The translations under genes were made by a program, and so were the position numbers. Under the pieces are notes generated by a model. It had not been told where the DNA came from. It was given only the letters and a program-made list of their open reading frames with translations, and ran no database searches. Positions 1-36,821 of a stretch of 64,000 bases of DNA are shown here, piece after piece. The stretch is from Mycobacterium sp. BK086 (GTDB lineage: Bacteria > Actinomycetota > Actinomycetes > Mycobacteriales > Mycobacteriaceae), in contig SNWL01000006.1 in the NCBI GenBank assembly GCA_004362315.1, forward strand, positions 124,001 through 188,000. The letters are read 5' to 3'. Each line of letters starts with the position of its first letter. Position 1 is the stretch's first letter.

Positions 1-104
1 CCCGCGGGGATCTCGGCGAACGCCGGCCACAGGCTGTGCTGCTCCTCATCGTTGACGAGCACATAGAAACGGCCGTCCTCGGCATCAAAGGGATTGGTAC
101 TCAC
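1..104 (-). CDS. mbtH: MbtH-like NRPS chaperone (5' part only)
   Basis: This is the first ~34 codons of an MbtH-family protein; the gene continues past the left edge. The visible N-terminus begins [15 protein letters not shown] and goes on through [12 protein letters not shown], the typical opening of this roughly 70-residue family. MbtH proteins bind NRPS adenylation domains and support their folding or activity. A GTG start at 104 is chosen because GGAGGA lies just upstream. It overlaps the 3' end of mbtG by 20 bases, so it is probably translated from the same mRNA. The conserved Trp residues in the rest of the protein cannot be checked here. Confidence 0.9.
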
Positions 105-1377
105 TGTTCCTCCTGGTAGTGGAATGTGCTGGGCGGACGCCTGCTCCCCCACCGAGGACCCGGTCGGACAGCAGACCCAGACAGCTGAGGTTCGGAAAGC
201 CCGGTCCCTGGGTGAGTCCGGAAAGATTGGGCAGGAACAACTTCGGCTGAACTCCGGTCAATGAGAGGTCGGCACCGATGGCCTGCTGCAGCCGGTCGCT
301 GGTCAGAAGTCCGTTCAGCCTGACCTCGAGCAGATCCAGCGCGTCCTGGCCCAGCAGCGACAGGAACCACAACGAGTCGGCACCCGAGCCGTCGATCACC
401 AGATCGAACCCGTGCACCGTCTCCAACCGCTCGCCGTGCCGATCGGTGTGCAGGGTGATCCGGATCCGGTCGTCGGCGGCGACACCGTGCGCGACGCGGC
501 CACGCAGGTGCCGAATCCGGTCGTCGGCCAACAACGAATCCTGCACGCGTGCCGAGAACACTCCGCGGTCGGTGCGGGCCATCACGTCGCGGCGTTCGGC
601 GATGGTCAGCCCCGTCCAGTCCGTCGGATCGCTGAACATCCGGTTCTCGAAGAAACTCTCTCCACGGGTGAAGAGGGTCGCCTGCGGAGAGATGACCGTG
701 ATCGTCGAAACCCGGTGTTTGAAAAGCTCGTTGAGCATCGAAGCGGCGGTTTCGCCGCCGCCGATCACCGCGACCCGTTCGGCGTCGATCCGATGATGAT
801 CGGCGGCCAGTTGCCAGAACTGGGCAATCGAGAGCACCTGCGGATGCCCGGGCAGCACCGACCTGTCGGGCTGGCCGGGGCCGGTGATCATCACTGCATC
901 GGCTGTAACAGTGGCGTCGCGGGTGTGCAGCTGCCACGATGGACCGTCCAGCGACAGCCGAATGACCTCGCCCGCAACGATGTTCAGCCCGGCGGCATCA
1001 CCCACCCACCGCAGGTAGCCTGCCCAGGTCTCGTGGGTGGGCGCCGGTTTGCCGCGGTCGACCCACTCGGCGAACCGCCCCGTCGCCACCAGATACGACT
1101 GCCAGCTCAACGTCATCATCCGCTGGTCGAGTTCGGCGTTACGGCCGGGCAGGATCGCCGAGCGGTACGGGAAGCCGACATCCTTCTCCGGGCTGGTCCC
1201 CAGCCGGTGCTGGCCGTCGGTCCAGCCGCCGCCCGCCCGCCAGTTCGCGGCGATCGCGGTCTGCTCGACGGCGATGATGTCGGGTGTGGCCACGCCCATG
1301 TCGCGCAGCATTGCGGCCTTGGCCGCCACCGCAACGGCTTTGGCTCCTGCCCCGAGAATCGCCAGCCGCCCGGTCAT
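85..1377 (-). CDS. mbtG: MbtG, flavin N6-monooxygenase for mycobactin lysine
   Basis: This 430-residue FAD/NADPH-dependent N-hydroxylase forms the hydroxamate on the epsilon nitrogen of (acyl-)lysine, giving the iron ligands of mycobactin. The N-terminal FAD motif [17 protein letters not shown], the segment [16 protein letters not shown], and the second dinucleotide motif [18 protein letters not shown] are near-identical to what I remember of M. tuberculosis MbtG, and the length is also as expected (~431). The C-terminal [20 protein letters not shown] is also intact. Its ATG overlaps the mbtF stop in an ATGA arrangement, so translation is probably coupled. It is expected to be iron-repressed through the IdeR sites at the far end of the mbtB operon. 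Confidence 0.95.
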
Positions 1378-4300: not shown

Positions 4301-5639
4301 GTCGTTCGGGTGTCCCGATCGAGCCGACTTCACCGTCGAGCAGGATGGCGACCGCGCCCAGCGGCCTGTCCCACATCTCGATGAGACGGCGCATCGTCCG
4401 CAGGACCCTCGTGCCCAGCAGCTCGGGGGTCATCGCGCCCAGCGCGTTGTCGGAAACCTCCACCAGCAGTGTGAGTTCGGCGCCGCTGCGGTAGGCGGCG
4501 ATGGTGACCGGGAAGTGGGTGAGGCTCTCCATCGCGGCGGGCCGGAAGCTCACCTCGCCTGACGAGAACTCCTGGCCACCGATCACTCCGGACGACGGGA
4601 AGCTCTCGTAGACAAGCAGGGTGTCGAACATCTCGCCGACTCCGGCGAAGGTGCGCAGCTGGGAATGCGTCAAATGACTGTGGTCGCGCAGCTGGGCAGC
4701 CTCGCGCTGCAGCGTCGAACAGTGCTGACCCACAGTCGTGTTCGGGTCCAGTCGCACCCGCATCGGAATGGTGTTGATGAACAACCCGACCATCGTCTCC
4801 ACGCCGGCCAACTCGGGCGGCCGCCCGGACACAGTGACACCGAACACGACGTCGTCACGGTCGGTCAGCCGCGACAGGATCAACCCCCAGGTCATCTGCA
4901 GGAGTGTGTTGAGCGTGACACCCCGCGAGCGGGCCGCTTCGGCGAGCTGCTCAGCCTCGGCGGCGGGCAGCGTCAGCTCGGTCCGCTTCGGCAGACCGGC
5001 ACCATCACCGCCCAGTGCCGGTGACAGCAACGTCGGCCCCGGCATCCCGGCAAGGTGCTGACGCCACACCTGTTCGCCGACGTGCGGGTCGCGGTCGGCG
5101 AGCCAGCCGATGTAGTCGCGATACAGCCGCGGCGGCGGGAGCGTGTCGGGGTCTCCGCCGCCCCGGTACAGCGTGAGCATCTCACCGATGAACACCGGAA
5201 GCGACCAACCGTCGATCACGATGTGGTGCGCGGTGACCACCAAACGCCAGCGCTGATCAGGCAATTCGATCAGCAGGAAACGGATCAGCGGGCCGTCGTG
5301 CAGGGTGAACGGCCGGCTGCGTTCGTGGTGTTCGAGGGCGGCCGCCTGATCGTCATCGGCCCGCACCTGCTGCCACGGCAGCTCGACCGCCGACGGCACG
5401 ATCTGGACGGGGTGCGGGAGGTCCTGATGCCAGAAGCTGGCCCGCAGGTTGGGATGCCGCACCAGCATCGCCGATGCGCACTCGCGCAGCAGGGCGACGT
5501 CGAGCGGCCCGGTCACGTCCGCGGTCATCGCGATGACGTACGGGTCGTCGGCGTCGGGTCCGATCAGCGTCGCGTGTGAATACAGCCCCAGCTGCAGCGG
5601 CGACAACGCCAGCACGTCGTCGATGTCGGCGTTGGTCAC
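1374..5639 (-). CDS. mbtF: MbtF, NRPS module C-A-T plus degenerate E-like domain
   Basis: This is the terminal peptide synthetase of the mycobactin line. In order it holds a condensation domain with intact HHIVIDG (about residues 5-430), an adenylation domain with FTSGTSGEPKG and YRTGDLVRRD (about 450-920), and a carrier domain with ELGLDSIVAL. A C-terminal epimerase-like domain (about 1020-1420) follows, whose active motif reads VHVLAMDP instead of HHxxxDG but which keeps NYLGR. A manual alignment to GrsA gives the specificity residues DAQDAGCVEK, close to the lysine code DAQDLGVVDK as I recall it, so lysine (to become the cyclic hydroxamate) is the likely substrate. GTG 5639 makes a GTGA overlap with the mbtE stop and has GAAGG upstream; ATG 5660 is the alternative. 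Confidence 0.93.
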   Translation of the reverse strand: MTNADIDDVLALSPLQLGLYSHATLIGPDADDPYVIAMTADVTGPLDVALLRECASAMLVRHPNLRASFWHQDLPHPVQIVPSAVELPWQQVRADDDQAAALEHHERSRPFTLHDGPLIRFLLIELPDQRWRLVVTAHHIVIDGWSLPVFIGEMLTLYRGGGDPDTLPPPRLYRDYIGWLADRDPHVGEQVWRQHLAGMPGPTLLSPALGGDGAGLPKRTELTLPAAEAEQLAEAARSRGVTLNTLLQMTWGLILSRLTDRDDVVFGVTVSGRPPELAGVETMVGLFINTIPMRVRLDPNTTVGQHCSTLQREAAQLRDHSHLTHSQLRTFAGVGEMFDTLLVYESFPSSGVIGGQEFSSGEVSFRPAAMESLTHFPVTIAAYRSGAELTLLVEVSDNALGAMTPELLGTRVLRTMRRLIEMWDRPLGAVAILLDGEVGSIGTPERLTAGESGVGERFAEAAAAHSDSIALRWDGGELTYGELHERSDRLAGLLVESRVHAETAVAIQLPRGADYVVAMLGVLKAGGMYVPLERGMPAGRVESILAQTGAALVVDEGTIAAARTAPRMSTPTAPGQAAYAVFTSGTSGEPKGVIGTHRALLAYIDDHAERMLRPAAERLGRPLSVGHAWSFAFDAAWQPLAGLLFGHTVHLIDEVDRRDAEALVEIIDRYGIDMLDVTPSLFTNLRRAGLLDRGLLSVLALGGEAVGSVDWTDIRKACTQTLLAAHNCYGPTETTVEAVVAAISDHDSPVIGYPTGSTGAVVLDSWLQPVPDGVVGELYLAGDQVTRGYLGRPAETATRFVAAPGGGRMYRTGDLVRRDRDGALSFIGRADAQIQVRGYRVEPGEIEAVLEEIPGVRHAHVAVHRQAAGQRLIAYVAGDVPVPDLRSLLRNRLPRYMMPHRLVVVDTIPLTANGKVDESALAAAVTPDETLELPATPTEVALAQAITALLGITDVDIDADLLELGLDSIVALSLVQTARRSGLPLRARLVLECGTLRELAAAVDRDTAEDLAAGPEPEGPIPALPAVHWLYEHGDPRRLAQIEAITLPPDASADRLRLLLDGIATGHEMFRSRIDLPTMTFLPADRQTIPLTEVEVIGELGDAVTEHAAAAIERLDPERGHLTEALWLHRPGDPGVLVLVVHVLAMDPASWRIVLGELMANWSTAADESISGERMSYRRWACTLADRATQLDTVEFWLEQLDGEDPALGARRIRPRVDRFGDLAITVSVTEDDVTSGLLRAQVPIQDVLADACARLITRWRDERGEGGPVPLVALETHGRSGAADDTVGLLSAIYPLRIRPGEPIPEIAGEPTDFALLRYARPDTAARLGGFRGPQVLLNYLGRLDLDAGSLLDRGLLAGVPIMTEPNIAVRHELTLVAAIAGGKLVTQWRTVPDIFDDADVAALQSIWQDTLRELAEVPR

Positions 5640-8600
5640 GAGGGACGAGCCTTCGACCATGACGATTTCAACGCATCCAGATCGCCCGCGGACAGCCCCG
5701 AGACGCTCATCGCTTCGTGGCGGGTGTCCGCCCGAACCTCACTCTCACCCTGCTCGTCGATCGCGCTTGCCAGTGCCGCCACGGTCGGGTAGTCGAAGAT
5801 CATTCTGGGGTCGACCGTCAGCCCGGCGGCCCGCATCCGGGCGGCCAGCTGCACCGACAGGATGCTGTCACCGCCGAGCGCGAAAAAGTCGTCCTCCCGG
5901 CCGATTCCGTCGACGCCGAGCAACTGGCCCATGGCACCTGTGACCGCACGCTCGGTGTCGGTCCTGGCCGGCTCATTCGTCCCGGTGGTGTGCACCTCCG
6001 GCCGGGGTAACGCCGGCCGGTTCAACTTGCCGGATTCCGTCGCCGGCATCACCTCGAGCACCGAGATCGTCGACGGCGTCATGTAGCCCGGCAGCGCGGC
6101 GGCCACCGACGCACGTACCGCGGCCGCGAACTCCGCTGGGTCCGACACCGGCTCGTGGGCCACCACGTAGCCGGCCAGGCTGGCCCCGCCGGGGCCCTCC
6201 CAGGTGCGTGCGGCCGCGGCGGCAACACCGTCGGCAGCCTTCAGTGCCGCTTCGACTTCAGCCAGTTCGACGCGGAATCCGCGCACCTTCACCTGATGGT
6301 CGGTGCGGCCGACGAATTCGAGCCGGCCGTCGTCGGTCCACCGCCCACGGTCGCCGCTGCGATAGAACCGCGAGCCCGGTTCGGACGCATACGGATTCGG
6401 GATGAAGCGGGTGGCGGTCAGACCTGGCTGCTTCCAGTAGCCGCGGGCGATCTGCTCCCCCGCGTAGTACAACTCGCCGACCACACCGATCGGCACCGGC
6501 TGGAGCGCATCGTCGAGCAGGTAGACCTGCGACCCCTCCATCGGTGCCCCGATCTTGGGGATCGGCAGGTCCAGCGGGCCGCGGATCAACGCACCCGAGG
6601 TTTCGGTGGCACCGATCGCGTTCAGCAGCTCACTGGTTCTCGCCGAACTGTCCCCCACACAGGCGACGAGCCGTTGCAGCAGAGAGACATTCACCGGCTC
6701 ACCACAGGTCACCAGGCGGCGCAGAGCGCGCACCGCATCCGGCGCACTGTCGACGAGTGCGGACACCAGGCTGGCGACACCAGTGACCTGAGCCACCGCG
6801 TGCCGCTCGATCAGACCGGCGATCGCCTCGGCGTCGCGGTGCTCGGCGTCGTCGGCGACGATCAGCGTCGATCCGGCCACCAACCCGGCCAGCGTCTCGA
6901 TGCATCCCTCGAGGAAGGTCATCGGCGCCTGGGCCAAGCGGATATCGGCCCCGGTCACCGGATAATGCTTGAGCTGCCAGGTCAACCGGGTGCTCATCGC
7001 CCGGTGGGTGCCCACCACGCCCTTCGGCTTGCCGGTGGAGCCCGAGGTGAACATCAGGTACATCGGATCGTCCGGGCGCGGAAGGGCAAGTGGTGCAACC
7101 GGATCGGTGGAGCCCAGCTCCGCCCGGACCGCCGGGTCGTCCATCGAGATCAGCGTGACCCCGTGGGCCTCGGGCATCGACGCAGCGGCTTCTGCGGTGA
7201 CGACCACAACTTCCGGCGCCACGTCGTCGAGCATGAACTGCTTGCGCGCCGGCGGATAGCTCGGATCGAGCGGGAAGAACCCGGCACCGGCCTTCATGAT
7301 GCCGACCAGCGCGACGACGAGATCGATACCGCGACGCATGGACATCCCGACCAGCGACCCGGGGCCGACGCCGTGGCGAACGAGCAGATGCGCGAATCGG
7401 TCCGAGCGATGGTGCAGCGCAGGGTAATCGAGATACTGGTCGCCGCAACGCAGTGCGACGCGGTCCGGACCCCAGGCGCGGCCGGCTTCCAGCAGCCCGG
7501 GCACCGTGCGGGGCCGGTCCGCCGGCGACGGGATGCCTCGGCTCTGGGCGAGCACCTGTTCCAGCTCCGCATCACCAAGCAGGTTGACGTCACGCAGCGT
7601 CGCGTCGGGGTCGGTGGCAAAGGCCTCGATGACCTGGCTCAGCCAATTGGTGAACCGCTGCATCGTCGACGCGTGGTACAGCTCGGTCCGGTAGATGACG
7701 TGGCCGCGGTAGCCGTCGTCACCGACGAAGAAGTTCACGCTCAGATCGGCGTGCGCCACATCGAATGTCGGTTCCAGCGCGGTGAACCTGGTCTCCCCGT
7801 CGGGTCCGGCCTCGATGAGTTGATCCTCGGGCAGCTCTTCGCGGACGTGTACGACGACCTGGAACAGCGGGTTGCGGGACAGCGACCGCACCGGGTTGAC
7901 GGCGTCGACCACCCTGTCGAACGGAAGATCCTGGTTGGCGTAGGCGGCCAGCGCCATCTCCCTGGCCCGCAGCAGTGCCTCACGCAGCGTCGGATTGCCC
8001 GACAGGTCGTTGCGCAACACCAGGATGTTGACGAAAAAGCCAACCAGCCGGTCCAATTCGGTGTCGGTACGGCCCGCCACCGGGGTGCCCAGCGGGATGT
8101 CGATACCGCCACCGGCCTTGTGTAGGACGACGGCGATCGCGGTCTGCAGCAGCATGAACTCGGTGATGCCCAGTTCACGGCTCAGCGCGGTGAGCCGGTC
8201 GCGGGTCCGGGCATCGAACCGCAGCGGAATGGCCGCGCCAGCCCCGCCGGCCATCGGCGGCCGCGGCAGATCGGGCCGCAGCCCGGTGTCCTCCGGCAGC
8301 CCGTCGAGTTGGCCCACCCAGTACTCCCGCTGGGCGTCCATCAGCTCGGTGTCGGACAGCAATTCGACCTGCCAGGCCGCGTAGTCGCGGTACTGGATGG
8401 GCAGCGGCTGCCAAGACGGCGCGGTGCCCTCACGCCGTGCGCGGTACGCGGTCAGCACGTCGGTGAACAACACACCCGCCGACCAGTGGTCGGCCGCGAT
8501 GTGGTGCACGACCATCGACAGCACACATTCGCCGGGGGTGCGCAACACCGCGACGCGGATCGGCAGCTCCGACTCCAGCTCGAAGCGGTGTGCTCGCTCA

Positions 8601-11600
8601 GCGTCGAGTTGCGTTGTCAGCCAGGCGCTGTCCGGGCCGTCAAGGCGGCGCACCTCGACGGTGTCGGCAGTCTCGACGGTCTGATGGGGAACACCGTCGA
8701 TCTCGCGGTAGACGGTCCGGAGAATCTCGTGGCGGGCAACGGCGTCACCGACGGCACTGACCAATGCGTCGACGTCGCACGGCCCGGTCAGCCTCGCGGC
8801 GAACGGGATGTTGTTCACCGGGCTGGGGCCGTCGACCCGGTACTGGAACCAGCTCCGCAGCTGTGCTGCCGACAACGGCGAATGCTCGGCATCGGTGGTA
8901 CGCGAGGTGAGCTGCGGCCGGTTCGAATTCGGTTGTCCGTCACGCAGGTCGTCGACTAGGGCGGCGAGCTCTCCGGGGGTGCCGTGCTCGAACACGTCAC
9001 GCACGCTCACATCAACCCCGCAGGCCTCACGGACCGCGGCCACCAGTTTGGTGGCCAGCAGTGAGTGGCCGCCCAGACTGAAGAACGAGTCGTCGCAGCC
9101 GACCTCGTCGGCGCCGAGCAACTCGGCGAACAGCGCGGCGACGGCGCGCTCGGTCTCGGTGACCGGTGCGCGGTAGTCGACAGCGGGCCCGATCTCCGGT
9201 TCCGGCAGCGCGGCACGGTCGAGCTTCCCGTTGGCGGTGACCGGAATTTCGTCGACGATGACGTAGGCGGCCGGGATCATGTAGTCCGGCAGCGCGGCCG
9301 CGACTCTGGTCTTGATCCGGTCGACATCCACCGTTTCACCGGCCGCGGGCGTCACGTACGCGATCAAACTCTTGCCGAGATGAGGGAGTTCGGCGGCGAT
9401 GACGACCGCGTTGCCCACGCTGGGATCGACCGTGACAGCGGCGGCCACCTCTCCGAGCTCGATCCGGAAGCCGCGGATCTTGACCTGTTCGTCGGCGCGG
9501 CCGACGAATTCGAGATCGCCGTTGCGGTTACGTCGGGCCAGGTCACCGGTTCGGTAGAGGCGGCCACCCGGGTTGAACGGGTCGGCGACGAAGCGCTCGG
9601 CGGTCAGCACCGGACGGTTATGGTAGCCGTGCGCCAGTTGCGTTCCGCCGATGTAGATCTCACCGATCACGTCGGCCGGAACGGGCCGCAGTGCGTCGTC
9701 GAGCAGATGGATCGTGGTGTTGATCTTGGGCGTGCCGATCGGGACCACGCCAGTGCCCTGCCTGCCCTCGACCTTGAACCGGGAGGCGTTGATGATCGTT
9801 TCGGTGGGCCCGTAGAAGTTGTGTAGCAGCGCGTCGAAGGTGGCGTGGAACTTGTCGGCGAGTTCGCCGGGCAAGGCTTCGCCGCCGATCGGCACGCGGC
9901 GCAGCGTGCGCCACTGCTCGACACCGGGCAACGACAGAAACAGGCCGAGCAGCGACGGTACGAAGTGCATGGACGTGATGGCCTCGCGCTGAAGCAGATC
10001 GGTGAGATAGCCGATGTCCCGCAAGCCATCGCTGCGCGGAATCACCAGGCGCGCACCTTGTGCCAGCACCCCGAAGATCTCGCCGATCGACACGTCGAAG
10101 CTCGGCGAGGCGACCTGCAACAGACGGTCGTCCGGACCGATCTGGTATTCCTCGGCGAACCAACGGAAGTAGTCGGCGACGGGCCGATGCGGCACCGGAA
10201 CGCCCTTGGGAAGTCCGGTCGAGCCCGAGGTGTAGATCAGGTAGGCGGTGTTGGCCGGGCCGAACGGACACGCCAGATCCCGTGTCGTTAGGTCGTCTGC
10301 GGAGAAGCTATCGGTTCCCGTGATCGGTTCGCGTACAACCAGTTTGGGATCAGAGTCGGCGAGGATGTAGGCGATGCGATCGGCCGGATATTCGGGATCC
10401 ACGGGGAGGTACACCGCACCCGCTTTCGCGATACCGAGCGCGGTGATCACCAGCTCGGGTGATTTCTCCAGCAGCACCGCGACCCTGTCCTCGGTGCCGA
10501 TGCCCTGAGCGATGAGCCAGCGCGCGTGTTGGTTCGCCGCTTCGTTGATCTCGCGGTAGCTGTAGCGGCGGCCCTCGTAGACAACCGCGATGGCATCCGG
10601 CTGCAGCGCGGCACGCTCGGCGATCAGGTCACCGAGTGTCATTGGGGGGCAGTCGTAGTCCTCACCCCGCGACACCCGCTCGAGCCAGCCGGTGTCGTGC
10701 TGGCCCAGCACTGCCAGGTCGGCCAACAGCCGGTCGGGATGGGGAACGGCGTCGTCGAGCAACACAGTGAAGCTGTCGAGCAGCTGGCTGGCCAGGTCGG
10801 CATCGATCACCTCGGTGAGGTATTCGGCCTCCACCTCGATCTCACCCGCGCTGAACTCGACCATGAAACCCAAAGGCAGCTGGGCGAACTGGCCGCGGTA
10901 CTCGGCCCGCTCGCACCGCACGCCTGGCGAGGTGAAACCGTGACCCTCGGACTCGCGCACGCCGAATCCGACCCGCGCCATCCGCTCGACGCCGTAGCGC
11001 CGGTCCGGGTTGAGTTCGCGCACTACCCGGTCGAGGTTGACCCGCTGATGGGCGAACGCTCCGACTGCGGTGTCGCGGGCAGCCTCGACCAGCTCACCGA
11101 AGGTGCCCCAGCGATTGGGCCGCATCCGCAGCGCGACCGTATTGCCGTAGTAGCCGATGACGTCATCCGAGGACCGGTTGAGAACCGGTGCGGCGACCAG
11201 GAAGTCGTCGGCGTGGGTGTAGCGCTGCATCAGCGCGGAGAATGCGGCCAGCAGCACCATGTAGGGCGTCGCGCCCAACTCATGCGCGAGTTTCGTCACC
11301 GCATCGACGGTGTCGGCGCTCAACCGGGTCGTGCACCGGTCGGCCCGCCACTCTGCCGGCACCGCCGAGCCTTTGGGTCCTGGCAGCTCCAGCGGTTCAG
11401 GCGGATCGACGAGCAGTGTGCGCCAGTACTCCACGTCGGCGTCGTCGGTACCGGATACCGGCGCCTCGGCCGCTACCACCGGCTCCAGGACATCGTCCTG
11501 ATAGGCCCGGGTGAGATCGGTGAAGAACACCCGCCAGGAGGCGTCGTCCCAGGCGATGTGGTGGGCGGCCAGCATCAGCACGTGCTCGGCAAGACCCACC

Positions 11601-12064
11601 TGGGCCAGCGTGATCCGCAGCGGCGCTTCGGTACTGAGGTCGAATGGTGTGGTGAAGGCGCGCTGAGCCAGCACCTCCAGCCGCAACCCGCGGGCCTGCG
11701 GGCTGAGCTCGCACAGATCGTGCTGTGCCCAGGCCGGTTTCAGGTCTTGGTGAACAGTGGTGCTCGGTTCTCCGTCGGAACCGGTGCGGTAGGTGGTGCG
11801 CAAGATCGGGTGACGCGCGGCGACGGCGTCGACCGCCGCATGTAGCCTCGCCGCATCGATCTCGCCGATCAGCCGATAGGAGACACCGACGTTCAGCAGA
11901 GCACCGGTGGTGTCGATGGACTGGACGAACCACATTCGTCGCTGGCCGTCGGTCATCACTGCGGGATCGGCCGTGGAAGTCGGCTCGGCCAGCAAGCCGC
12001 GCTGAGCGAGCCTGTGGCGCAACAGCTCCAGGCGCTGTTGGTCGGTGGCAAGAACGTCAGTCAT
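5636..12064 (-). CDS. mbtE: MbtE, dimodular NRPS (C-A-T-C-A-T)
   Basis: This synthetase of about 2140 residues carries two complete elongation modules. Module 1 has C (HHIAWDD), A (YTSGSTGLPKG, YRTGDLARRN) and T (SLGGHSLLATKL). Module 2 has C (HHIAADHWS), A (FTSGSTGKPKG, YRSGDRGRW) and T (ALGGDSILSVQL). The M. tuberculosis MbtE I remember is about 1680 residues, so this protein is clearly longer. The A1 specificity residues read DVGHPGFINK by manual alignment; a small-residue pocket could suit a bulky acyl-hydroxylysine, which is inference. The A2 residues read LEITVCAGAK, with Leu at the usual Asp235. ATG 12064 follows GAGGAGATCCC; a longer form starting at 12133 would run into mbtB and lacks a ribosome site. 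Confidence 0.92.
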   Translation of the reverse strand: MTDVLATDQQRLELLRHRLAQRGLLAEPTSTADPAVMTDGQRRMWFVQSIDTTGALLNVGVSYRLIGEIDAARLHAAVDAVAARHPILRTTYRTGSDGEPSTTVHQDLKPAWAQHDLCELSPQARGLRLEVLAQRAFTTPFDLSTEAPLRITLAQVGLAEHVLMLAAHHIAWDDASWRVFFTDLTRAYQDDVLEPVVAAEAPVSGTDDADVEYWRTLLVDPPEPLELPGPKGSAVPAEWRADRCTTRLSADTVDAVTKLAHELGATPYMVLLAAFSALMQRYTHADDFLVAAPVLNRSSDDVIGYYGNTVALRMRPNRWGTFGELVEAARDTAVGAFAHQRVNLDRVVRELNPDRRYGVERMARVGFGVRESEGHGFTSPGVRCERAEYRGQFAQLPLGFMVEFSAGEIEVEAEYLTEVIDADLASQLLDSFTVLLDDAVPHPDRLLADLAVLGQHDTGWLERVSRGEDYDCPPMTLGDLIAERAALQPDAIAVVYEGRRYSYREINEAANQHARWLIAQGIGTEDRVAVLLEKSPELVITALGIAKAGAVYLPVDPEYPADRIAYILADSDPKLVVREPITGTDSFSADDLTTRDLACPFGPANTAYLIYTSGSTGLPKGVPVPHRPVADYFRWFAEEYQIGPDDRLLQVASPSFDVSIGEIFGVLAQGARLVIPRSDGLRDIGYLTDLLQREAITSMHFVPSLLGLFLSLPGVEQWRTLRRVPIGGEALPGELADKFHATFDALLHNFYGPTETIINASRFKVEGRQGTGVVPIGTPKINTTIHLLDDALRPVPADVIGEIYIGGTQLAHGYHNRPVLTAERFVADPFNPGGRLYRTGDLARRNRNGDLEFVGRADEQVKIRGFRIELGEVAAAVTVDPSVGNAVVIAAELPHLGKSLIAYVTPAAGETVDVDRIKTRVAAALPDYMIPAAYVIVDEIPVTANGKLDRAALPEPEIGPAVDYRAPVTETERAVAALFAELLGADEVGCDDSFFSLGGHSLLATKLVAAVREACGVDVSVRDVFEHGTPGELAALVDDLRDGQPNSNRPQLTSRTTDAEHSPLSAAQLRSWFQYRVDGPSPVNNIPFAARLTGPCDVDALVSAVGDAVARHEILRTVYREIDGVPHQTVETADTVEVRRLDGPDSAWLTTQLDAERAHRFELESELPIRVAVLRTPGECVLSMVVHHIAADHWSAGVLFTDVLTAYRARREGTAPSWQPLPIQYRDYAAWQVELLSDTELMDAQREYWVGQLDGLPEDTGLRPDLPRPPMAGGAGAAIPLRFDARTRDRLTALSRELGITEFMLLQTAIAVVLHKAGGGIDIPLGTPVAGRTDTELDRLVGFFVNILVLRNDLSGNPTLREALLRAREMALAAYANQDLPFDRVVDAVNPVRSLSRNPLFQVVVHVREELPEDQLIEAGPDGETRFTALEPTFDVAHADLSVNFFVGDDGYRGHVIYRTELYHASTMQRFTNWLSQVIEAFATDPDATLRDVNLLGDAELEQVLAQSRGIPSPADRPRTVPGLLEAGRAWGPDRVALRCGDQYLDYPALHHRSDRFAHLLVRHGVGPGSLVGMSMRRGIDLVVALVGIMKAGAGFFPLDPSYPPARKQFMLDDVAPEVVVVTAEAAASMPEAHGVTLISMDDPAVRAELGSTDPVAPLALPRPDDPMYLMFTSGSTGKPKGVVGTHRAMSTRLTWQLKHYPVTGADIRLAQAPMTFLEGCIETLAGLVAGSTLIVADDAEHRDAEAIAGLIERHAVAQVTGVASLVSALVDSAPDAVRALRRLVTCGEPVNVSLLQRLVACVGDSSARTSELLNAIGATETSGALIRGPLDLPIPKIGAPMEGSQVYLLDDALQPVPIGVVGELYYAGEQIARGYWKQPGLTATRFIPNPYASEPGSRFYRSGDRGRWTDDGRLEFVGRTDHQVKVRGFRVELAEVEAALKAADGVAAAAARTWEGPGGASLAGYVVAHEPVSDPAEFAAAVRASVAAALPGYMTPSTISVLEVMPATESGKLNRPALPRPEVHTTGTNEPARTDTERAVTGAMGQLLGVDGIGREDDFFALGGDSILSVQLAARMRAAGLTVDPRMIFDYPTVAALASAIDEQGESEVRADTRHEAMSVSGLSAGDLDALKSSWSKARPS

Positions 12065-12104
12065 GGGATCTCCTCGGTGTCGGTGATCATCGAGCGCGGC
12101 GGCG

Positions 12105-15100
12105 TCAGCCGGGCATCCGCTGCGCTGCGTCACCGGCTGTGGTGAGCGCCATGGCCACCTCAGCGCTGTCCATGTCGGTCACTTCGAGATACAGCTCGGC
12201 GATTTCGTCGAGCCGCTCGGCGGGTTCGAGTTCACGAAGCCGGTTGGCCAGGCCTTCGACGGTGCGGGTGGCGAAGATGTCGGCGACGCTGACGCCCGGG
12301 ACGTCCAGCCATTGCCTGATCCGTGCGACCACGGTGGTGGCCAGGACGGAATCGCCGCCCTGGCTGAAGAAGTCGTCGTCGACTCCCAACCGTGGCGCCC
12401 CGAGGACACCGGCGACGATGGCCGTGAGCGCCGATTGCAAGGGGCCGACAGCGGGCCGGTACATAGCCGCGGATTCGGCGTGATCGGCCAGCTGACGCGC
12501 GACCGCCTGCCGGTCGACCTTGCCACCCACCGTGTAAGGGATGTGGTCCAGTACCTCGACGTGCTGCGGAACCATGTGGGGTGGAATCACTTTGCCCAAC
12601 TGATGCCGAAGTTCGTCGACCGGCGGCGAATCCGCTGCGAGCACGACACTCGCAGCCAGCCAGTCCTGGGCGCCGGTTCGCGCAGGGAGCGTCACCGCGA
12701 CGGCACCGAGCACACCTGGCAACCGTTGCAGCGCCGCCTCCACCTCGCCGAGTTCCACCCGGTAGCCGCTGATCTTGACCCGGTTGTCGGCGCGGCCGAC
12801 GAACTCGCATGTCCCGTCCGGCCAGAAGCGGGCCAGATCCCCGGTGCGATACCAGGTGATGCCGTCGTGGTCGACGAATCGCTCGGCGGTCAGGTCGGGT
12901 CTGCCCCGGTAGCCGCGGGCGATACCGCGTCCACCGATCCACAGCTCGCCGGGCACCCAGTCCGGGCAATCATCACCTGTCGCGCTGACAACGCGGCACC
13001 GGTTGTTGGGCAATGGTTTTCCGAACGGAATCGCGGTCCAGTCGGCCGGCACGTCGACCACTTCGCAGACCGTGTTGTGAATCGCCGTCTCGGTGGCGCC
13101 ACCGAGGCCGGCAAACCGGACTTCGGGGGCGCGGTCGCGCAACTGTCTGGCCATCGCGGGGGTGACCCAGTCCCCGCCCGTCGGGACCACCCGCACGGTC
13201 GGCAACGGGCCTGCGACCTCGAGCAGCATTGCCAGCCAGCCGGGCAGGAAGTGGAGCACGGTGACCTGATGGGCCTCGATGAGCCGCACCCACTGATCCG
13301 GGTCGCGACGATGCTCCTCGCCGACGACGACGATCGCCCCGCCGGTGGCCAGGGTGGCGAAGATGTCCAGCACCGAGATATCGCACTCCAGGGTGGACAG
13401 CGCCAGGCATCGGTCGTCTGGTCCGAGCCCGAAATGCTCGGTGATGAACTCGACGGTGTTCATCGCGGCGTCGTGGGTGACCTCTACGCCCTTCGGCTCG
13501 CCGGTCGACCCCGAGGTGAACAACACATAGGCGAGGCGGTTGGGATCACCGGTGACCGAGGATGATTCGATGCCGTCCCCGCGGGCGACAGCGTCGGCAA
13601 CCGTCATGGCAGGCACCGCGACGTCGGGCAGTTCGGTGCCACACACCAGTGCGATGTCCACCGCCGCGCCCGCAATGATCCGTTGAGCCCGCTCAGCCGG
13701 CTGGTCTGCGCCGATCGGCAGATAGACGCCGCCGGCCGCGTGGATTCCCAGCAGGGCAGGCACCTGCTCCGCGGTCTTGGGGCCGAGCACCGCGACGGTC
13801 CCGCCGTCGGGGAGCCCCGCGGCGCGCAATGCGGCGGCGACCGCCAGCGCCTGTCGCCGCAACTCCCCATACGTCAGGTCGCCCATCCCGGAGAAGGCCG
13901 CAGGTGCATCTGGCTGACGGGCGGCGGCTGCGAAGAAGCCGTCGTGCAGCATTCGCCCGCTGGGGGGCGCGGTCGTCGTGACCGCTTCCCGGGCCTTGCG
14001 CTGCAGCGCGGGCAGCAGCGTCTCGCGCGGGGCGTCCCAGCCCTCGTCGTCGTGGGCCAGGTGCCGCACTTCGTCGATGTGTCGAGCGAACATCGCGTCG
14101 ATCACACCGGGGCAGAAGGCGTCCTCCCGGACGTCCCAGTTCAGCAGGATGCCGCCGCCGAATTCGGTCACCTGAGCGTCGAGCAGAACCTGCGGCCCCT
14201 GGGAGATGATCCACTCCGGTGAGCCGAATTGTGTTGTCACCTCGGGACTGAACAGTTCTCCGAGGCCGAGCGCGCTGGTGAACACGACTGGCGCCAGCAC
14301 CTGCGTCCCGCGGTGGCGGCTGAGGTCGCGCAGCACCGATAGACCGGGATACGACGCGTGCGCCGCGGCCTCGTGCATGCTCTGTTGCACCGATCGTGCT
14401 CGCTGCGCGGGGGTGTTCGCGGCGGCAAGGTCGATGTCGAGAAGCAGCGATGAGGTGAAGTCACCGACCACCTTCTCGACGTCGGGATGCAGCGGCTCCC
14501 GGCCGAACAGCGGGACGTTGAGCAGGAAGCGCGGATCGGCCGACCAGCCGGCCACGGTGTCGGCGAACGAGGCCGCCAGGGTCATCGCCGGTGTGACACC
14601 GCGCCGCCGGGCCCGCGCGAAGAGGCCGTCGCGGGTCGCCGGATCCAGCCAATGCCAACGGCGGCCGGGCCGGTGCGGGTCGGTCCGCTGGGCGACGGGC
14701 CGCAGCGGCAGCGCCGGCGCATCGGGCAACTCGGGCACCCGCTCAGCCCACCACTGCCGATCGTCCTCGAAGCTGTCCGGCTGCGAAACGTGTTGGCGGT
14801 ATTGCTGATACGTGTAGCCGATATCGGTGAGCGGGTCACCGCCGTACAGCGCGGCCAGGTCGGTCATCAGCGCCCGGTAGCTCATCGCGTCGGCGGCCTG
14901 CATATCCAGGTCGACATGCAGGCGGGTGCGGTCTCGGGGCAGCAGGGTCAGCGTCAGCTCGAGTACCTGGCCGGAGAGCTGTTGGCGCGACTTGGCCGTG
15001 CGAACGGCCGCCAGGTGCTGACCGACCGCCACATCGTCGGCGCCACGAAGGTCGGTGACCGCAACGGGGAACGGATCCGGGGCGGGACCGATGCGCTGGG

Positions 15101-15596
15101 TTCCGTCGGGCAGGAACTGCACGCGCAGCATCGGATGCCGGGCGGCCAGTTGGGTGGCCGCCCGCCGGAAGCGGTCCGGGTCCGTCACGGAACCGTCGAA
15201 CTCGACGTAGAGGTGACCGGCCACGCCGCCCAGTTGTTGGTCGGCATGCCTGCCGATCCACATCGCGTGCTGCATCGGCGCCATCGCGAACGGCTCGCCA
15301 TCGGCAGGTTGGGCATGTGCCGGTGCCGGATCGGGCCGGTCGGCGGGCGTCAGCAGCTCAGCCCAGGCGCGGACCGACGGGGCAGCCGCCAGCCTGGCGA
15401 AGTCGATGTCGAAACCGGCGCGACGCCACTGTCCGGCCAGGGTCATCATCCGGATCGAGTCGAGCCCCTGCGCGATCAGGTCGTCTTCCGGGTCGATGTC
15501 AGCGCAGTCGACGCCGAGCAGCTCGGCGACCCGGTCGGTGATCCTGGCCGCTTCCGGACCCCCCGGGTGCGGGGAGCCGACGTCAGCCCCGGTCAC
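12105..15596 (-). CDS. mbtB: MbtB, salicyl-oxazoline NRPS (ArCP-Cy-A-T), no thioesterase
   Basis: MbtB receives salicylate from MbtA on its N-terminal aryl carrier domain (QGLDSIRMM), condenses it with Ser or Thr and cyclises the product to an oxazoline. The cyclisation domain carries a perfect DxxxxDxxS signature (DMQAADAMS). Next come an A domain (FTSGSTGEPKG, YRTGDLARFW, signature about DILHPGLIHK) and a carrier domain (SQGGDSVLATT). The protein ends about 60 residues after that carrier, at ~1163 aa, whereas the M. tuberculosis protein I recall is ~1414 aa with a C-terminal thioesterase. GTG 15596 is preferred because AGGAGG lies five bases upstream; the GTG at 15611 has no such site. It is 40 bases upstream of mbtE and heads the operon. 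Confidence 0.93.
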   Translation of the reverse strand: MTGADVGSPHPGGPEAARITDRVAELLGVDCADIDPEDDLIAQGLDSIRMMTLAGQWRRAGFDIDFARLAAAPSVRAWAELLTPADRPDPAPAHAQPADGEPFAMAPMQHAMWIGRHADQQLGGVAGHLYVEFDGSVTDPDRFRRAATQLAARHPMLRVQFLPDGTQRIGPAPDPFPVAVTDLRGADDVAVGQHLAAVRTAKSRQQLSGQVLELTLTLLPRDRTRLHVDLDMQAADAMSYRALMTDLAALYGGDPLTDIGYTYQQYRQHVSQPDSFEDDRQWWAERVPELPDAPALPLRPVAQRTDPHRPGRRWHWLDPATRDGLFARARRRGVTPAMTLAASFADTVAGWSADPRFLLNVPLFGREPLHPDVEKVVGDFTSSLLLDIDLAAANTPAQRARSVQQSMHEAAAHASYPGLSVLRDLSRHRGTQVLAPVVFTSALGLGELFSPEVTTQFGSPEWIISQGPQVLLDAQVTEFGGGILLNWDVREDAFCPGVIDAMFARHIDEVRHLAHDDEGWDAPRETLLPALQRKAREAVTTTAPPSGRMLHDGFFAAAARQPDAPAAFSGMGDLTYGELRRQALAVAAALRAAGLPDGGTVAVLGPKTAEQVPALLGIHAAGGVYLPIGADQPAERAQRIIAGAAVDIALVCGTELPDVAVPAMTVADAVARGDGIESSSVTGDPNRLAYVLFTSGSTGEPKGVEVTHDAAMNTVEFITEHFGLGPDDRCLALSTLECDISVLDIFATLATGGAIVVVGEEHRRDPDQWVRLIEAHQVTVLHFLPGWLAMLLEVAGPLPTVRVVPTGGDWVTPAMARQLRDRAPEVRFAGLGGATETAIHNTVCEVVDVPADWTAIPFGKPLPNNRCRVVSATGDDCPDWVPGELWIGGRGIARGYRGRPDLTAERFVDHDGITWYRTGDLARFWPDGTCEFVGRADNRVKISGYRVELGEVEAALQRLPGVLGAVAVTLPARTGAQDWLAASVVLAADSPPVDELRHQLGKVIPPHMVPQHVEVLDHIPYTVGGKVDRQAVARQLADHAESAAMYRPAVGPLQSALTAIVAGVLGAPRLGVDDDFFSQGGDSVLATTVVARIRQWLDVPGVSVADIFATRTVEGLANRLRELEPAERLDEIAELYLEVTDMDSAEVAMALTTAGDAAQRMPG

Positions 15597-15610
15597 TGTC
15601 GCCTCCTGCA

Positions 15611-15649
15611 CCTTTACAGCCTCACCTAACTTTGGGAAGGCTACCCTAT
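15611..15649. promoter_or_regulatory. IdeR box(es) between mbtB and mbtA
   Basis: The 19-mer TTTGGGAAGGCTACCCTAT at 15631-15649 matches the IdeR consensus TTAGGTTAGGCTAACCTAA at 14 of 19 positions. A second, poorer box abuts it: the reverse complement of 15611-15629 reads TTAGGTGAGGCTGTAAAGG, with a perfect left half only. The pair lies in the divergent mbtB/mbtA promoter, so iron-loaded IdeR should repress both operons. Matches were counted by eye. Confidence 0.8.
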
Positions 15650-15685
15650 GCTCGCTGCGCGAAGATGCCTACCTCAGGGAGTGCA

Positions 15686-17281
15686 ATGACCGGGTTCACA
15701 CCCTTTCCACCGGACCGTGCGACGGCGTACCGCGACGCGGGTTACTGGGCCGGCCGGCCCCTCGACGAGATCCTTCGGTCGGCCGCCGCGCGCTGGCCCG
15801 ATCACCCGGCCGTCATCGACGACCGGACCACGCTCACCTACGCTGAGCTGGACCGACGCGCCGATTCGGCGGCGGCGGGGCTTGTCGGGTTGGGCATCGG
15901 CACCGGGGACGCGGTACTGGTCCAGCTGCCCAACAGTTGCCAGTTCGCTGTCGCGCTGTTCGGGCTGCTGCGGGCGGGCGCTCTACCGGTGATGTGCCTG
16001 CCCGGTCACCGCGACGCGGAGCTCGCGCACTTCCTCGACGTGAGCGAGGCGGTCGGCGTCATCGTGGGAACCGACGCCGGATTCGACTTCCGGGCCATGG
16101 CCGAGCGGCTTCTCGAGCGCGACAACAAGCTGCGGCACATCATCGTCGACGGCGATGCGGGCCCGCACATCTCCTGGCCTCAGCTGTGCGCGGGCGACGG
16201 GCGACCCCCACAGCTGTGCCCGGATACGTGCGGGCCGGCCGTGCTGCTGGTGTCCGGCGGCACGACCGGCGCGCCGAAACTGATCCCCCGCACGCACGAC
16301 GACTACGTCTACAACGCCACCGCGAGTGCTCAGCTGTGCGAGCTCACCGATGCGGATGTGTATCTCGTGTCGTTGCCCGCGGGCCACAACTTCCCGCTCG
16401 CGTGCCCCGGGCTCCTTGGCGCGATGACCGTCGGGGCGACGGTGGTGTTCGGTCGAGATCCCAGTCCGGAAGCGGCGTTTGCCACGATCGCCCGTCACGG
16501 CGTCACCGCCACGGCACTGGTGCCGGCGCTGGCGCGGTTGTGGGCGCAGGCCTGCGAGTGGGAGGAACAGCTCCCGACCACCCTGCGGCTGCTGCAAGTC
16601 GGCGGTGCGAAACTGGCTGCCGACGATGCCCGGCAGATCCGCTCCGTGCTCACCCCCGGGCTGCAGCAGGTGTTCGGAATGGCCGAAGGCCTGTTGTGCT
16701 ACACGAGAATTGGCGACCCCGCTGAGATCGTCGACCAGACCCAGGGCCGCCCGCTGGCCGAGCACGACGAGCTGCGGATCGTCGACGACGCCGGCGTCGC
16801 GGTGCCCGACGGCGAGCCCGGCGAGCTATTGGTGCGTGGGCCATACACGATCAACGGCTACTTCCGGGCCGAGGCCGAGAACCAGCGGTCGTTCACCCCG
16901 GACGGCTTCTACCGCAGCGGCGACAAGGTGCGGCGCTTCGCCAACGGTTATGTCGAGGTCACCGGCCGGGTCAAGGATGTCATCCTGCGGGCCGGCGAGA
17001 CCATCTCCGCGCTCGACCTCGAAAGCCACCTACTGACCCACCCGGCGGTGTCCACCGCCGCGGCCGTAGGCCTGCCCGATCCCTATCTGGGTGAGAAGAT
17101 CTGTGCCGCAATAGTCTTTCGCGGACGTCCGGTGTCACTGTCCGAGCTCAACGACCATCTCGACGCCCGCGGCGTCGCCGTACACAGCCGTCCCGACATG
17201 ATCGCGCCAATGCCCGCCTTGCCGACCACCGCGGTCGGGAAGGTCGACAAACGCGCAATCGTCGCGCAGCTGTGTCCGTGA
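15686..17281 (+). CDS. mbtA: MbtA, salicyl-AMP ligase
   Basis: This stand-alone aryl-acid adenylation enzyme of 531 residues activates salicylate and loads it onto the MbtB aryl carrier domain. It shows the ATP loop VSGGTTGAPKLIPRTHDDY, the aryl-acid pocket segment GHNFPLACPG, and YRSGDKVRR; the C-terminal TTAVGKVDKRAIV holds the catalytic Lys. ATG 15686 is chosen because GGGAG stands five bases before it; the in-frame ATG at 15665 is possible, while a start near 15632 would lie inside the IdeR box. It is divergent from mbtB and convergent with mbtI, with six bases between the stop codons. Confidence 0.95.
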   Translation: MTGFTPFPPDRATAYRDAGYWAGRPLDEILRSAAARWPDHPAVIDDRTTLTYAELDRRADSAAAGLVGLGIGTGDAVLVQLPNSCQFAVALFGLLRAGALPVMCLPGHRDAELAHFLDVSEAVGVIVGTDAGFDFRAMAERLLERDNKLRHIIVDGDAGPHISWPQLCAGDGRPPQLCPDTCGPAVLLVSGGTTGAPKLIPRTHDDYVYNATASAQLCELTDADVYLVSLPAGHNFPLACPGLLGAMTVGATVVFGRDPSPEAAFATIARHGVTATALVPALARLWAQACEWEEQLPTTLRLLQVGGAKLAADDARQIRSVLTPGLQQVFGMAEGLLCYTRIGDPAEIVDQTQGRPLAEHDELRIVDDAGVAVPDGEPGELLVRGPYTINGYFRAEAENQRSFTPDGFYRSGDKVRRFANGYVEVTGRVKDVILRAGETISALDLESHLLTHPAVSTAAAVGLPDPYLGEKICAAIVFRGRPVSLSELNDHLDARGVAVHSRPDMIAPMPALPTTAVGKVDKRAIVAQLCP

Positions 17282-17287
17282 TCCCGA

Positions 17288-20444
<3,157 letters not shown>

Positions 20445-20448
<4 letters not shown>

Positions 20449-27450: not shown

Positions 27451-27454
27451 CGAC

Positions 27455-33846: not shown

Positions 33847-33865
33847 TAAGGGTAGCCTTACCAAA
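33847..33865. promoter_or_regulatory. IdeR box upstream of mbtL
   Basis: TAAGGGTAGCCTTACCAAA matches the IdeR palindrome at 15 of 19 positions and stands 24 bases before the mbtL ATG. It should make the mbtL-mbtM-mbtN operon iron-repressed, as for mbt-2 genes elsewhere. Confidence 0.8.
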
Positions 33866-33889: not shown

Positions 33890-34135
33890 ATGGACTCATC
33901 GACGATCAGTGGCGAGCTGGCGAGCATCTTCCGCGACGACCTCCAGGTCGACGTGTCACGCTTCACCGCGGACTCCCACCTGATCGATGAGGTCGGACTC
34001 GACTCGGTGGCGTTCGCCGTCGGCATGGTCGCGATCGAGGAGAAACTCGGCGTCGTGTTGTCGGAGGAAGAACTGCTCACCTGCAACACGCTCGGCGACC
34101 TCGACACCGCGATCCGGGCCAAAGCACAGGGATGA
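33890..34135 (+). CDS. mbtL: MbtL, acyl carrier protein for the mycobactin acyl chain
   Basis: This 81-residue carrier protein has its phosphopantetheine Ser39 in GLDSVAF. It carries the fatty acyl chain activated by MbtM and oxidised by MbtN until MbtK transfers it to the lysine side chain. The size, the acidic composition and the gene order L-M-N are those of the mbt-2 set. ATG 33890 is chosen although no strong ribosome site precedes it. Its stop overlaps the mbtM start (ATGA). Confidence 0.92.
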
Positions 34136-35676: not shown

Positions 35677-36821
35677 CCGATTTCACTGAACTGCTGGACG
35701 CCACCTTCGACGATCAGGTCGCGCTGTGGACCGCGGATGCCGAAGCCAGCGAACGATTCCCGCGCCAGCTGATCGAACACCTCGGCAAGTCCGGAGTGTT
35801 CCGGCAGAAGTGGGGTGAGCCGTCCCAGACGCATGCCGACCTCGGGAAGCTCATCGCGCTCGCGTCATCCCTCGGGGATCTGATGTCGGCCGGGATCGCG
35901 GTGGGTGTCAGCCTGCACGACTCCGCGATCGCGATCCTGCGCCGCTTCGCCAGATCCGACTACCTACGCGAGATCTGCGAACAGGCCATCGACGGCGACA
36001 CGGTGCTCTGCATCGGGGCATCGGAGGAATCGGGCGGCTCGGATCTCCAGATCTGCGAGACCACGATCTCCAAGCGCGACGGTGGATTCGACGTGCGCGG
36101 GATCAAGAAGTTCGTCTCGCTGTCCCCCATCGCCGATCACATCATCGTGGTGGCCCGCAGCGTCGACCACGACCCGTCGAGCCGGCACGGCAACGTCGCA
36201 CTGATCGCGGTGCCGACCGCGAACGTCGACGTCCAACCGCCCTACCGCAAGCTCAGCGCGGGACCCCTGGACACCGCGGCCGTACACATCGACACGTGGG
36301 TTCCCGAGGAGGCGCTGGTCGCGCGGTCGGGCACCGGTCTCGCCGCCATCAGCTGGGGCCTGGCGCACGAACGCCTGTCGGTGGCCGCGCAGGTTGCCTC
36401 GTCCTGCGAAAAGGCAATCGCAATCACTCTGGCGCGCATGATGACTCGCCAACAGTTCGGACAGACACTCTTCGAACATCAGGCATTGCGCCTGCGGATC
36501 GCCGACCTGTCCGCGCGCGTGGCATTGCTGCGGCACGGCCTTGACGGGATCGCGGCCGGGGGGCGCCTCGACCTGCGTACCGCCGCGGGGATGAAGGTCA
36601 CCGCCGCCCGGTTGGGCGAAGAGGTCGCCGGCGAATGCCTGCACATCTTCGGCGGCTCGGCGTTTCTGGTCGACGAGACACCGCTCGGCCGCTGGTGGCG
36701 CGATATGAAGCTGGCCCGCGTCGGCGGTGGAACCGACGAGGTCCTCTGGGAACTGGTCGCCGCCGGGCTCAAGCCCGACTTCGACGGCTACGCCAAGTTG
36801 GTCGGCCGCGCGAACTCGTAG
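35673..36821 (+). CDS. mbtN: MbtN, acyl-ACP dehydrogenase (FadE14-like)
   Basis: This 382-residue flavoprotein of the acyl-CoA dehydrogenase fold introduces the cis double bond next to the carbonyl of the mycobactin acyl chain while it is on MbtL. Visible landmarks are [13 protein letters not shown] (flavin/substrate contact), the helix region [17 protein letters not shown], and [22 protein letters not shown] near the end. ATG 35673 overlaps the mbtM stop. Its last 34 bases overlap the convergent mbtK gene. Confidence 0.92.

What the first reader, a model, noticed from the sequence alone, without database searches (positions are those of the whole stretch)
1..17281. Mycobactin cluster lacking mbtC and mbtD
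mbtB is followed after 40 bases by mbtE, where M. tuberculosis has the polyketide genes mbtC and mbtD that make the 3-hydroxy acid unit. No ketosynthase, acyltransferase or ketoreductase occurs anywhere in the window, while MbtE has gained a second full module. The siderophore would have its middle unit made by an NRPS module instead of a PKS. If the rest of the genome lacks these PKS genes this is a distinct mycobactin variant.
Basis: partly seen in the sequence, partly recalled or inferred. Interest (0 to 1): 0.85.

Follow-up and report, generated by a model that had tools for sequence, protein, structure and literature searches.

The report
Mycobactin cluster without its polyketide synthase
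A group of environmental mycobacteria carries the genes for the iron-scavenging molecule mycobactin but lacks the polyketide enzymes thought to make its middle piece, and a second, unusual peptide-synthetase module that seems not to use an ordinary amino acid probably loads that piece directly.

Summary
mbtB and mbtE are 40 bases apart, MbtE is C-A-T-C-A-T, and no MbtC or MbtD orthologue was found in the window or the rest of the 6.9 Mb, 100%-complete genome. It is a clade trait: of 297 same-genus genomes, 18 (window's included) have an A2 domain at least 76% identical and 0 of 18 have MbtC, while 74 of 75 with a more distant A2 match do. All 18 join mbtB to mbtE and have a type VII secretion locus, probably ESX-3, right after mbtH. 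A2 lacks the Asp that binds an alpha-amino group. Its pocket code is LEITVCAGAK in 12 of 12 PKS-less MbtE and LEMTV(G/S)NG(A/G) in 49 of 49 others, and in five pairs compared it is as constrained as A1. Most likely A2 loads a ready-made hydroxy acid in place of the PKS product; which acid is unknown. New variant of a known kind; the chemistry is untested.

The parts
85..1377 (-). mbtG, lysine N-hydroxylase
   Evidence: Pfam Lys_Orn_oxgnase; 85-93% identical in 10 PKS-less relatives, 75% in L060
1374..5660 (-). mbtF, C-A-T plus degenerate C-like end
   Evidence: Pfam and own domain HMMs; A code DAQDAGCVEK
5636..12133 (-). mbtE ORF, C-A-T-C-A-T, likely ATG start at 12064
9209..10621 (-). MbtE A1 domain, code DVGHPGFINK (Asp235 kept, alpha-amino acid type)
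7553..8887 (-). MbtE C2 domain, active-site motif HHIAADHWS
6014..7495 (-). MbtE A2 domain, code LEITVCAGAK (Asp235 replaced by Leu, acid at 236); proposed to load a hydroxy acid
5753..5953 (-). MbtE T2 carrier domain
12065..12104 (.). 40-base mbtB-mbtE junction where relatives carry mbtC and mbtD (and, in L056, a thioesterase gene)
12105..15611 (-). mbtB, T-Cy-A-T
15632..17281 (+). mbtA, salicyl-AMP ligase ORF (true start probably near 15686)
   Evidence: TIGR02275 567 bits, below that model's equivalog cut-off of 723.55
15631..15649 (+). weak IdeR-box-like site, 5 mismatches, between mbtA and mbtB
   Evidence: consensus recalled; no site within 3 mismatches in the window
17303..18553 (-). 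mbtI, salicylate synthase
   Evidence: TIGR03494 535 bits, cut-off 325
18633..18651 (-). weak IdeR-box-like site upstream of mbtI, 4 mismatches
33847..33865 (-). weak IdeR-box-like site upstream of mbtL, 4 mismatches
33890..34135 (+). mbtL-like acyl carrier protein
   Evidence: Pfam PP-binding
34132..35676 (+). mbtM-like acyl-AMP ligase
   Evidence: Pfam AMP-binding
35565..36821 (+). mbtN-like acyl dehydrogenase (ORF start too early)
   Evidence: Pfam Acyl-CoA_dh
36788..37933 (-). mbtK-like N-acyltransferase
   Evidence: Pfam Acetyltransf_8; found near mbtI in 4 of the 5 other PKS-less genomes whose mbtI side was read

Best explanation
This is an NRPS-only mycobactin pathway. The usual steps remain: MbtI and MbtA make and load salicylate, MbtB makes the phenyl-oxazoline, MbtE module 1 adds (hydroxy)lysine, MbtF adds the terminal cyclised lysine, and MbtG, MbtK-N and MbtH modify or assist (roles from the known pathway). 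The middle unit, made elsewhere by MbtC-MbtD, is instead a free non-amino acid, most likely a beta-hydroxy acid from ordinary metabolism. MbtE A2 activates it and loads it on T2, and MbtE C2 esterifies it with the lysine thioester before MbtF continues. The module is older than the genus. The PKS was probably inserted between mbtB and mbtE early in the genus and later lost in this clade, whose A2 pocket has changed. Shown here: gene absence, conservation, residue changes, gene trees. Inferred: substrate, bond type, product and the direction of the history.
For: No MbtC or MbtD orthologue found in the genome. In 18 of 18 PKS-less genomes no MbtC match at E 1e-145. Lower thresholds gave no standalone MbtC-like gene: (window genome, E 0.001) shows 27-48% matches, its only standalone ketosynthases being three at 30-32%; (E 1e-90 and 1e-60) show 38-48% matches in the PKS-less genomes, in ORFs of 1285 aa or more except one of 694 and one of 579. 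A2 lacks Asp235, yet F-L-E-G, T-E-T and the A10 Lys are invariant in 33 of 33 A2 domains aligned (33 of the 61 full ones). Code is LEITVCAGAK in 12 of 12 PKS-less against LEMTV(G/S)NG(A/G)K in 49 of 49 other full A2 domains, three of these cut before K. A2 dN/dS is 0.065-0.116 in 5 hand-picked PKS-less pairs, like A1 (0.062-0.109); in 4 hand-picked PKS-bearing pairs it is 0.101-0.214 against 0.077-0.162 for A1. C2 keeps the DHWS motif of PKS-bearing mycobacteria, whose mycobactins have an ester there (recalled). A review (PMC11253843, passages) describes a small or aliphatic residue at 235 in alpha-hydroxy and alpha-keto acid A domains.
Against: The review also names McyG, which activates Phe with Val at position 235, so loss of Asp235 does not exclude an amino acid. 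No A domain specific for a beta-hydroxy acid was found to compare with. PKS-bearing relatives have both a full A2 and the PKS, so A2 need not do the PKS's job. The PKS-less state is one clade, so the code change is one event and not independent replication. In one member (L060) mbtF is split over two ORFs, a break or a sequencing error. No chemistry or expression data.
Confidence: 0.58

Rival explanations
1. A2 activates a beta-amino acid such as beta-alanine or 3-aminobutyrate, so the middle bond is an amide.
For: A2 has a hydrophobic residue at 235 followed by an acid at 236 (LE here, LD in 4 of 4 outgroups), like NRPS beta-alanine codes (recalled, not from a call). Kasichelins, also phenolate-oxazoline siderophores, carry beta-alanine or beta-aminoisobutyrate as linker (PMC12305651, abstract start and passages).
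Against: The review says the VinN-type beta-amino-acid A domains bind the amino group through Asp235 (PMC11253843, passages). C2 has DHWS as in the other mycobacterial MbtE, not DEWS as in the 4 outgroups.
Confidence: 0.15
2. Another polyketide synthase in the genome makes the 3-hydroxy acid and passes it to MbtE.
For: A PKS on contig C1 (2714-aa ORF: acyl ligase, KS, AT, KR and two carrier domains) has the KS closest to MbtC, 48%, and the best AT and KR matches to MbtD. PKS-less genomes G093 and G441 have a similar protein.
Against: In a 118-genome sample, matches of at least 66% to its first 700 residues at nearly full length are in only 2 of 7 PKS-less genomes (window's included) but in 7 MbtC-bearing ones. 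It is on another contig than mbt, and no iron box within 3 mismatches lies on that contig.
Confidence: 0.1
3. A2 activates an ordinary alpha-amino acid, giving a peptide-linked siderophore, as the first reader suggested in general form.
For: The fold is an ordinary A domain; a Val-235 domain can take Phe.
Against: Leu at 235 with an acid at 236 in all 61 full A2 domains read and in 4 of 4 outgroups.
Confidence: 0.12
4. The cluster is decayed or makes no siderophore.
For: PKS genes are missing; mbtF is split in one member, L060; no iron box within 3 mismatches lies inside the window.
Against: The window's mbt ORFs are open, dN/dS is low in every MbtE domain compared, and the layout is kept in 18 of 18 genomes. 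Weaker iron-box-like sites (4-5 mismatches) sit before mbtA/mbtB, mbtI and mbtL.
Confidence: 0.05

Closest known systems
Canonical mycobactin cluster mbtA-J plus mbtK-N (M. tuberculosis, M. smegmatis; recalled and from passages)
   Same: mbtA, B, E, F, G, H, I and mbt-2 type genes are present, A-B-E-F-G-H in canonical order
   Different: No mbtC or mbtD, full A2 with a changed pocket, type VII secretion locus directly after mbtH
M. abscessus MBT Ab
   Same: An atypical mycobacterial mycobactin locus
   Different: It has MbtC and MbtD at a separate locus, a long alkyl chain in the PKS-derived unit, and no mbt-2 (PMC9505556, passages)
MAC, M. kansasii-group and Mycolicibacter mbt clusters
   Same: Full C-A-T-C-A-T MbtE with A2 of the L-E type
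   Different: They keep mbtC and mbtD between mbtB and mbtE and have code LEMTV(G/S)NG(A/G)K
Unnamed clusters of three other genera in the family (L148-L151)
   Same: Full two-module MbtE and no MbtC/MbtD match in the 20 kb taken; in L148 and L149 mbtB and mbtE are neighbours
   Different: A2 code LDLTVS(S/G)G(G/A/S)K, C2 motif DEWS, no eccA match in the 20 kb
Nocobactins (Nocardia)
   Same: Mycobactin-like scaffold with a beta-hydroxy acid ester
   Different: Middle unit made by NbtB and NbtC polyketide enzymes (PMC7413640, passages)
Kasichelins
   Same: Phenolate oxazoline linked through an NRPS-loaded middle unit, no PKS in the described assembly line
   Different: Beta-amino acid middle unit, hydroxyornithine, Streptomyces (PMC12305651, passages)

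Membership tests
Mycobactin biosynthesis cluster | Salicylate synthase MbtI and salicyl-AMP ligase MbtA | tested here: met
   TIGR03494 535 bits, over cut-off; MbtA best match TIGR02275, below its equivalog cut-off, as expected if its substrate is salicylate rather than DHB
Mycobactin biosynthesis cluster | MbtB T-Cy-A-T, MbtE and MbtF NRPS, MbtG hydroxylase, MbtH | tested here: met
   (MbtH at C4:123907-124152, partly outside the window)
Mycobactin biosynthesis cluster | PKS MbtC (KS) and MbtD (AT-KR-ACP) | tested here: not met
   Not found in window or genome; MbtC not found in any of the 18 PKS-less genomes; MbtD searched genome-wide only in the window's genome and within 20 kb in the other 17
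Mycobactin biosynthesis cluster | Lysine acylation genes mbtK-N | tested here: met
   By Pfam class and clustering only
Mycobactin biosynthesis cluster | Product with a 3-hydroxy acid middle unit | not testable with these tools
   Needs LC-MS
Hydroxy- or keto-acid A domains of depsipeptide synthetases | Asp235 replaced by a small or aliphatic residue | tested here: met
   Leu in 12 of 12 PKS-less and 49 of 49 other full A2; criterion from PMC11253843
Hydroxy- or keto-acid A domains of depsipeptide synthetases | Ketoreductase in the module (keto-acid type) | tested here: not met
   No KR in MbtE; a keto-acid route is disfavoured, direct hydroxy-acid loading is not
Beta-amino-acid A domains (VinN type) | Asp235 retained to bind the amino group | tested here: not met
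   Leu at this position; criterion from PMC11253843

The most novel reading that the evidence does not exclude
Mycobactin assembly began without a polyketide synthase: a dimodular MbtE with a hydroxy-acid-loading A2 is ancestral in the family, the mbtC-mbtD PKS was inserted later and made A2 dispensable in many mycobacteria, and one environmental clade went back to the NRPS-only route with a re-tuned pocket and an altered middle unit, building an mbt-type VII secretion iron superlocus.
Probability: 0.35. Interest if true: 0.75.

Novelty: new variant of a known kind. Interest (0 to 1): 0.62.

Why it matters
Mycobactin biosynthesis is usually presented as an NRPS-PKS hybrid. A clade that does without the PKS, together with PKS-bearing species that keep an intact second A domain in MbtE, reopens how the middle hydroxy acid reaches MbtE, and this is directly testable with one purified didomain and one mass spectrum. 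It would also be an A domain class with no characterised member known to me, and a natural case of an NRPS module and a PKS being exchangeable in one assembly line.

Tried and rejected
MbtE second module as a gain specific to this organism: rejected, since it is present in 49 of the other 69 loci and in the 4 outgroup clusters.

PKS relocated elsewhere in the genome: no standalone MbtC-like gene in any of the 18 PKS-less genomes. Of the 11 named PKS-less loci, L002 and L064 were not searched genome-wide. A relocated, divergent PKS is detectable this way: M. barrassiae (L075) has no PKS between mbtB and mbtE, but a ketosynthase (48-49%, 449-aa ORF) with an MbtD-like neighbour (34%) lies just past the cluster.

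The contig-C1 PKS as substitute: disfavoured.

PKS-bearing mycobacteria as one clade with this clade outside it (PKS never present here): rejected on the MbtE tree, AU p = 2e-6, with the limits of a gene tree, a quick search under LG+G4 and long outgroup branches, which the program warned about. Two separate PKS gains are not excluded.

The gene at 32347-33678, found between mbtI and mbtK in four other PKS-less genomes, as supplier of the middle unit: it reads as a low-complexity surface protein, with no Pfam match near significance and no PDB match.

The A2 model (mean pLDDT 75) and its fold search gave, in the 50 rows shown, NRPS and related A domains and did not help with the substrate.

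Literature: the listings (titles, abstract starts; 85 listed nothing) showed no paper on a cluster with the mycobactin NRPS genes but without mbtC and mbtD, on the dimodular MbtE, or on mbt-ESX-3 adjacency. Most subscription papers are not held, and two relevant ones (PMC3370630, PMC3194918) could not be opened.

Limits: the one genome-contig scan kept its best 80 of 177 confirmed loci; 92 of 297 genomes in the census had neither an A2 nor an MbtC match at the thresholds used and were not examined.
Full report
What is there. The window is part of a 6.93 Mb, 11-contig, 100% complete genome (C4:124001-188000). Reading leftwards on the minus strand: mbtB (T-Cy-A-T), mbtE (C-A-T-C-A-T, 2165 aa), mbtF (C-A-T and a degenerate C-like end) and mbtG; mbtA diverges on the plus strand. 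mbtB and the likely mbtE ATG are 40 bases apart. mbtI lies beside mbtA (TIGR03494 535 bits), and mbt-2 type genes (ACP, acyl-AMP ligase, acyl dehydrogenase, N-acyltransferase) lie at 33890-37933. mbtH begins inside the window's edge and runs out of it, followed by an iron-box-like site (2 mismatches) and a type VII secretion locus with EccA, EccB, an FtsK-type EccC, PPE, EspG, EccD and EccE. I take it for ESX-3 from gene order and the iron box; no call separates the ESX types. Inside the window no iron box lies within 3 mismatches; at 4-5 mismatches five places show up, among them before mbtA/mbtB, mbtI and mbtL (consensus recalled, no chance estimate at that laxity).

No PKS. PF00109 gives 26 matches in the genome, none in the window. 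The best MbtC match is 48%, inside a 2714-aa PKS ORF; MbtD matches are 26-35%. MbtC orthologues in relatives are at least 67% identical to the queries, so I count the genome as having none. In relatives the gap between mbtB and mbtE holds mbtC (KS) and mbtD (AT-KR-ACP) and, in the one locus scanned for it (L056), a thioesterase gene.

How widespread. One scan of named genomes kept 80 of 177 confirmed loci. In 11 of 80 mbtB abuts mbtE: M. rhodesiae (two), M. vinylchloridicum, M. sphagni (two), M. pinniadriaticum and five others. Of the other 69, 63 show mbtC by a 45%-identity, half-length rule, L022 has a cut piece of it, four more cut loci (L011, L024, L049, L054) show mbtD pieces, and L075 has a relocated divergent PKS. 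eccA follows mbtH in 11 of 11 PKS-less loci and is seen in 0 of 69 others, some of which are too short to tell. In a census of 297 same-genus genomes, 93 have an A2 match at E 1e-100. Eighteen, counting the window's genome, are at least 76% identical and 0 of 18 have MbtC at E 1e-145. The other 75 are at most 71% identical (one, G178, only 42%, in a 5169-aa ORF, probably not MbtE), and 74 of 75 have MbtC; G076, with stops in A2, does not. A further 112 have MbtC without an A2 match and 92 have neither. I took 20 kb from each of the other 17: 17 of 17 have mbtB next to mbtE, no mbtC or mbtD match at E 1e-20, and eccA after mbtH. Lower-threshold MbtC searches of these genomes gave only 38-48% ketosynthases, in ORFs of 1285 aa or more except two of 694 and 579 aa.

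The second module is old. A full A2 of more than 350 residues is in 61 of 81 MbtE (80 loci plus window): 12 of 12 PKS-less and 49 of 69 others; 20 of 81 have only a remnant or none. Four clusters from three other genera of the family also have the full module, and the 20 kb taken from each holds no MbtC or MbtD match. Genome-wide (E 1e-90), one of those four (G315) has a 52% standalone KS on another contig, so it is not shown to be PKS-free; G340, of the same genus, has none; G321 and G302 have 46-47% and 40% ketosynthases inside ORFs of 3489 and 1790 aa. On a tree of 53 MbtE without A2, rooted on these four, the 14 PKS-less rows form one clade (SH-aLRT 100), the 16 A2-less rows one clade (99), and four Mycolicibacter rows branch first, while a fifth (L025) falls with the slow growers. 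Without L151, making all PKS-bearing mycobacteria one clade is rejected (AU p 2e-6). A 37-row A2 tree gives the same picture, so A2 looks inherited and not swapped in. The simplest history is one PKS gain and one loss here; two gains remain possible. These are gene trees from a quick search, with long outgroup branches.

What A2 may do. Aligned to the GrsA code, A2 has Leu for Asp235 and Glu at 236; A1, MbtB and MbtF keep Asp. HMMER's own alignment of A2 to linear gramicidin synthetase puts the same Leu opposite an Asp. F-L-E-G is invariant in 33 of 33 aligned A2 domains, together with T-E-T and the A10 Lys. A2 is under constraint like A1 in 5 hand-picked PKS-less pairs and looser than A1 in 3 of 4 hand-picked PKS-bearing pairs. 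The review PMC11253843 (passages) reports small or aliphatic residues at 235 in hydroxy- and keto-acid A domains, Asp235 binding the amino group in beta-amino-acid domains, and one Val-235 domain that takes Phe. C2 has DHWS in all 81 mycobacterial MbtE read (12 PKS-less, 49 full-A2, 20 A2-less) and DEWS in 4 of 4 outgroups. I read this as a module that loads a hydroxy acid and esterifies it; the identity of the acid is a guess guided by the known middle unit.

Novelty. Passages of PMC9505556, PMC9769883, PMC10667711, PMC4810606 and PMC7413640 describe other mycobactin loci or losses (for example M. haemophilum, which lacks many mbt genes), none with the NRPS genes but without the PKS. The searches that showed no report were made, seen as listings in an open-access library only.

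Noticed in passing
window start and C4:108001-124152 (L094): The mbt cluster runs directly into a type VII secretion locus (taken for ESX-3) with an iron-box-like site between mbtH and eccA. eccA follows mbtH in all 18 PKS-less genomes and was seen in 0 of 69 other loci (some too short). ESX-3 and mycobactin are functionally coupled in mycobacteria, so this would be an iron-uptake superlocus.
   Followed up: partly
window 19426-29248: A block with a DrrAB-like ABC transporter, an EryCIII-like glycosyltransferase, an A-T-TE NRPS-like protein (867 aa), a Na/H exchanger and a flavin monooxygenase with a weak iron-box-like site about 50 bases upstream. Of five other PKS-less genomes whose mbtI side was read, only G172 has the whole block; three others have only relatives of the ABC pair (52-57%). 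It may make a second iron-regulated product.
   Followed up: no
window 32347-33678: A low-complexity surface-type protein without Pfam match, with a weak iron-box-like site at its start; relatives of about 50% identity lie between mbtI and mbtK in four other PKS-less genomes.
   Followed up: partly
L075 and L157 (M. barrassiae): mbtC and mbtD are absent between mbtB and mbtE, but a divergent MbtC-like (48%) and MbtD-like (34%) pair lies just past the cluster: a relocated or replaced PKS.
   Followed up: partly
L116 (G076): A same-genus genome with an MbtE interrupted by two stops and no MbtC match, probably a decayed mycobactin cluster.
   Followed up: no
L150 (unnamed genus g26): Dimodular mbtE and mbtF next to each other without a strong mbtB or mbtA match in the 20 kb taken.
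   Followed up: no
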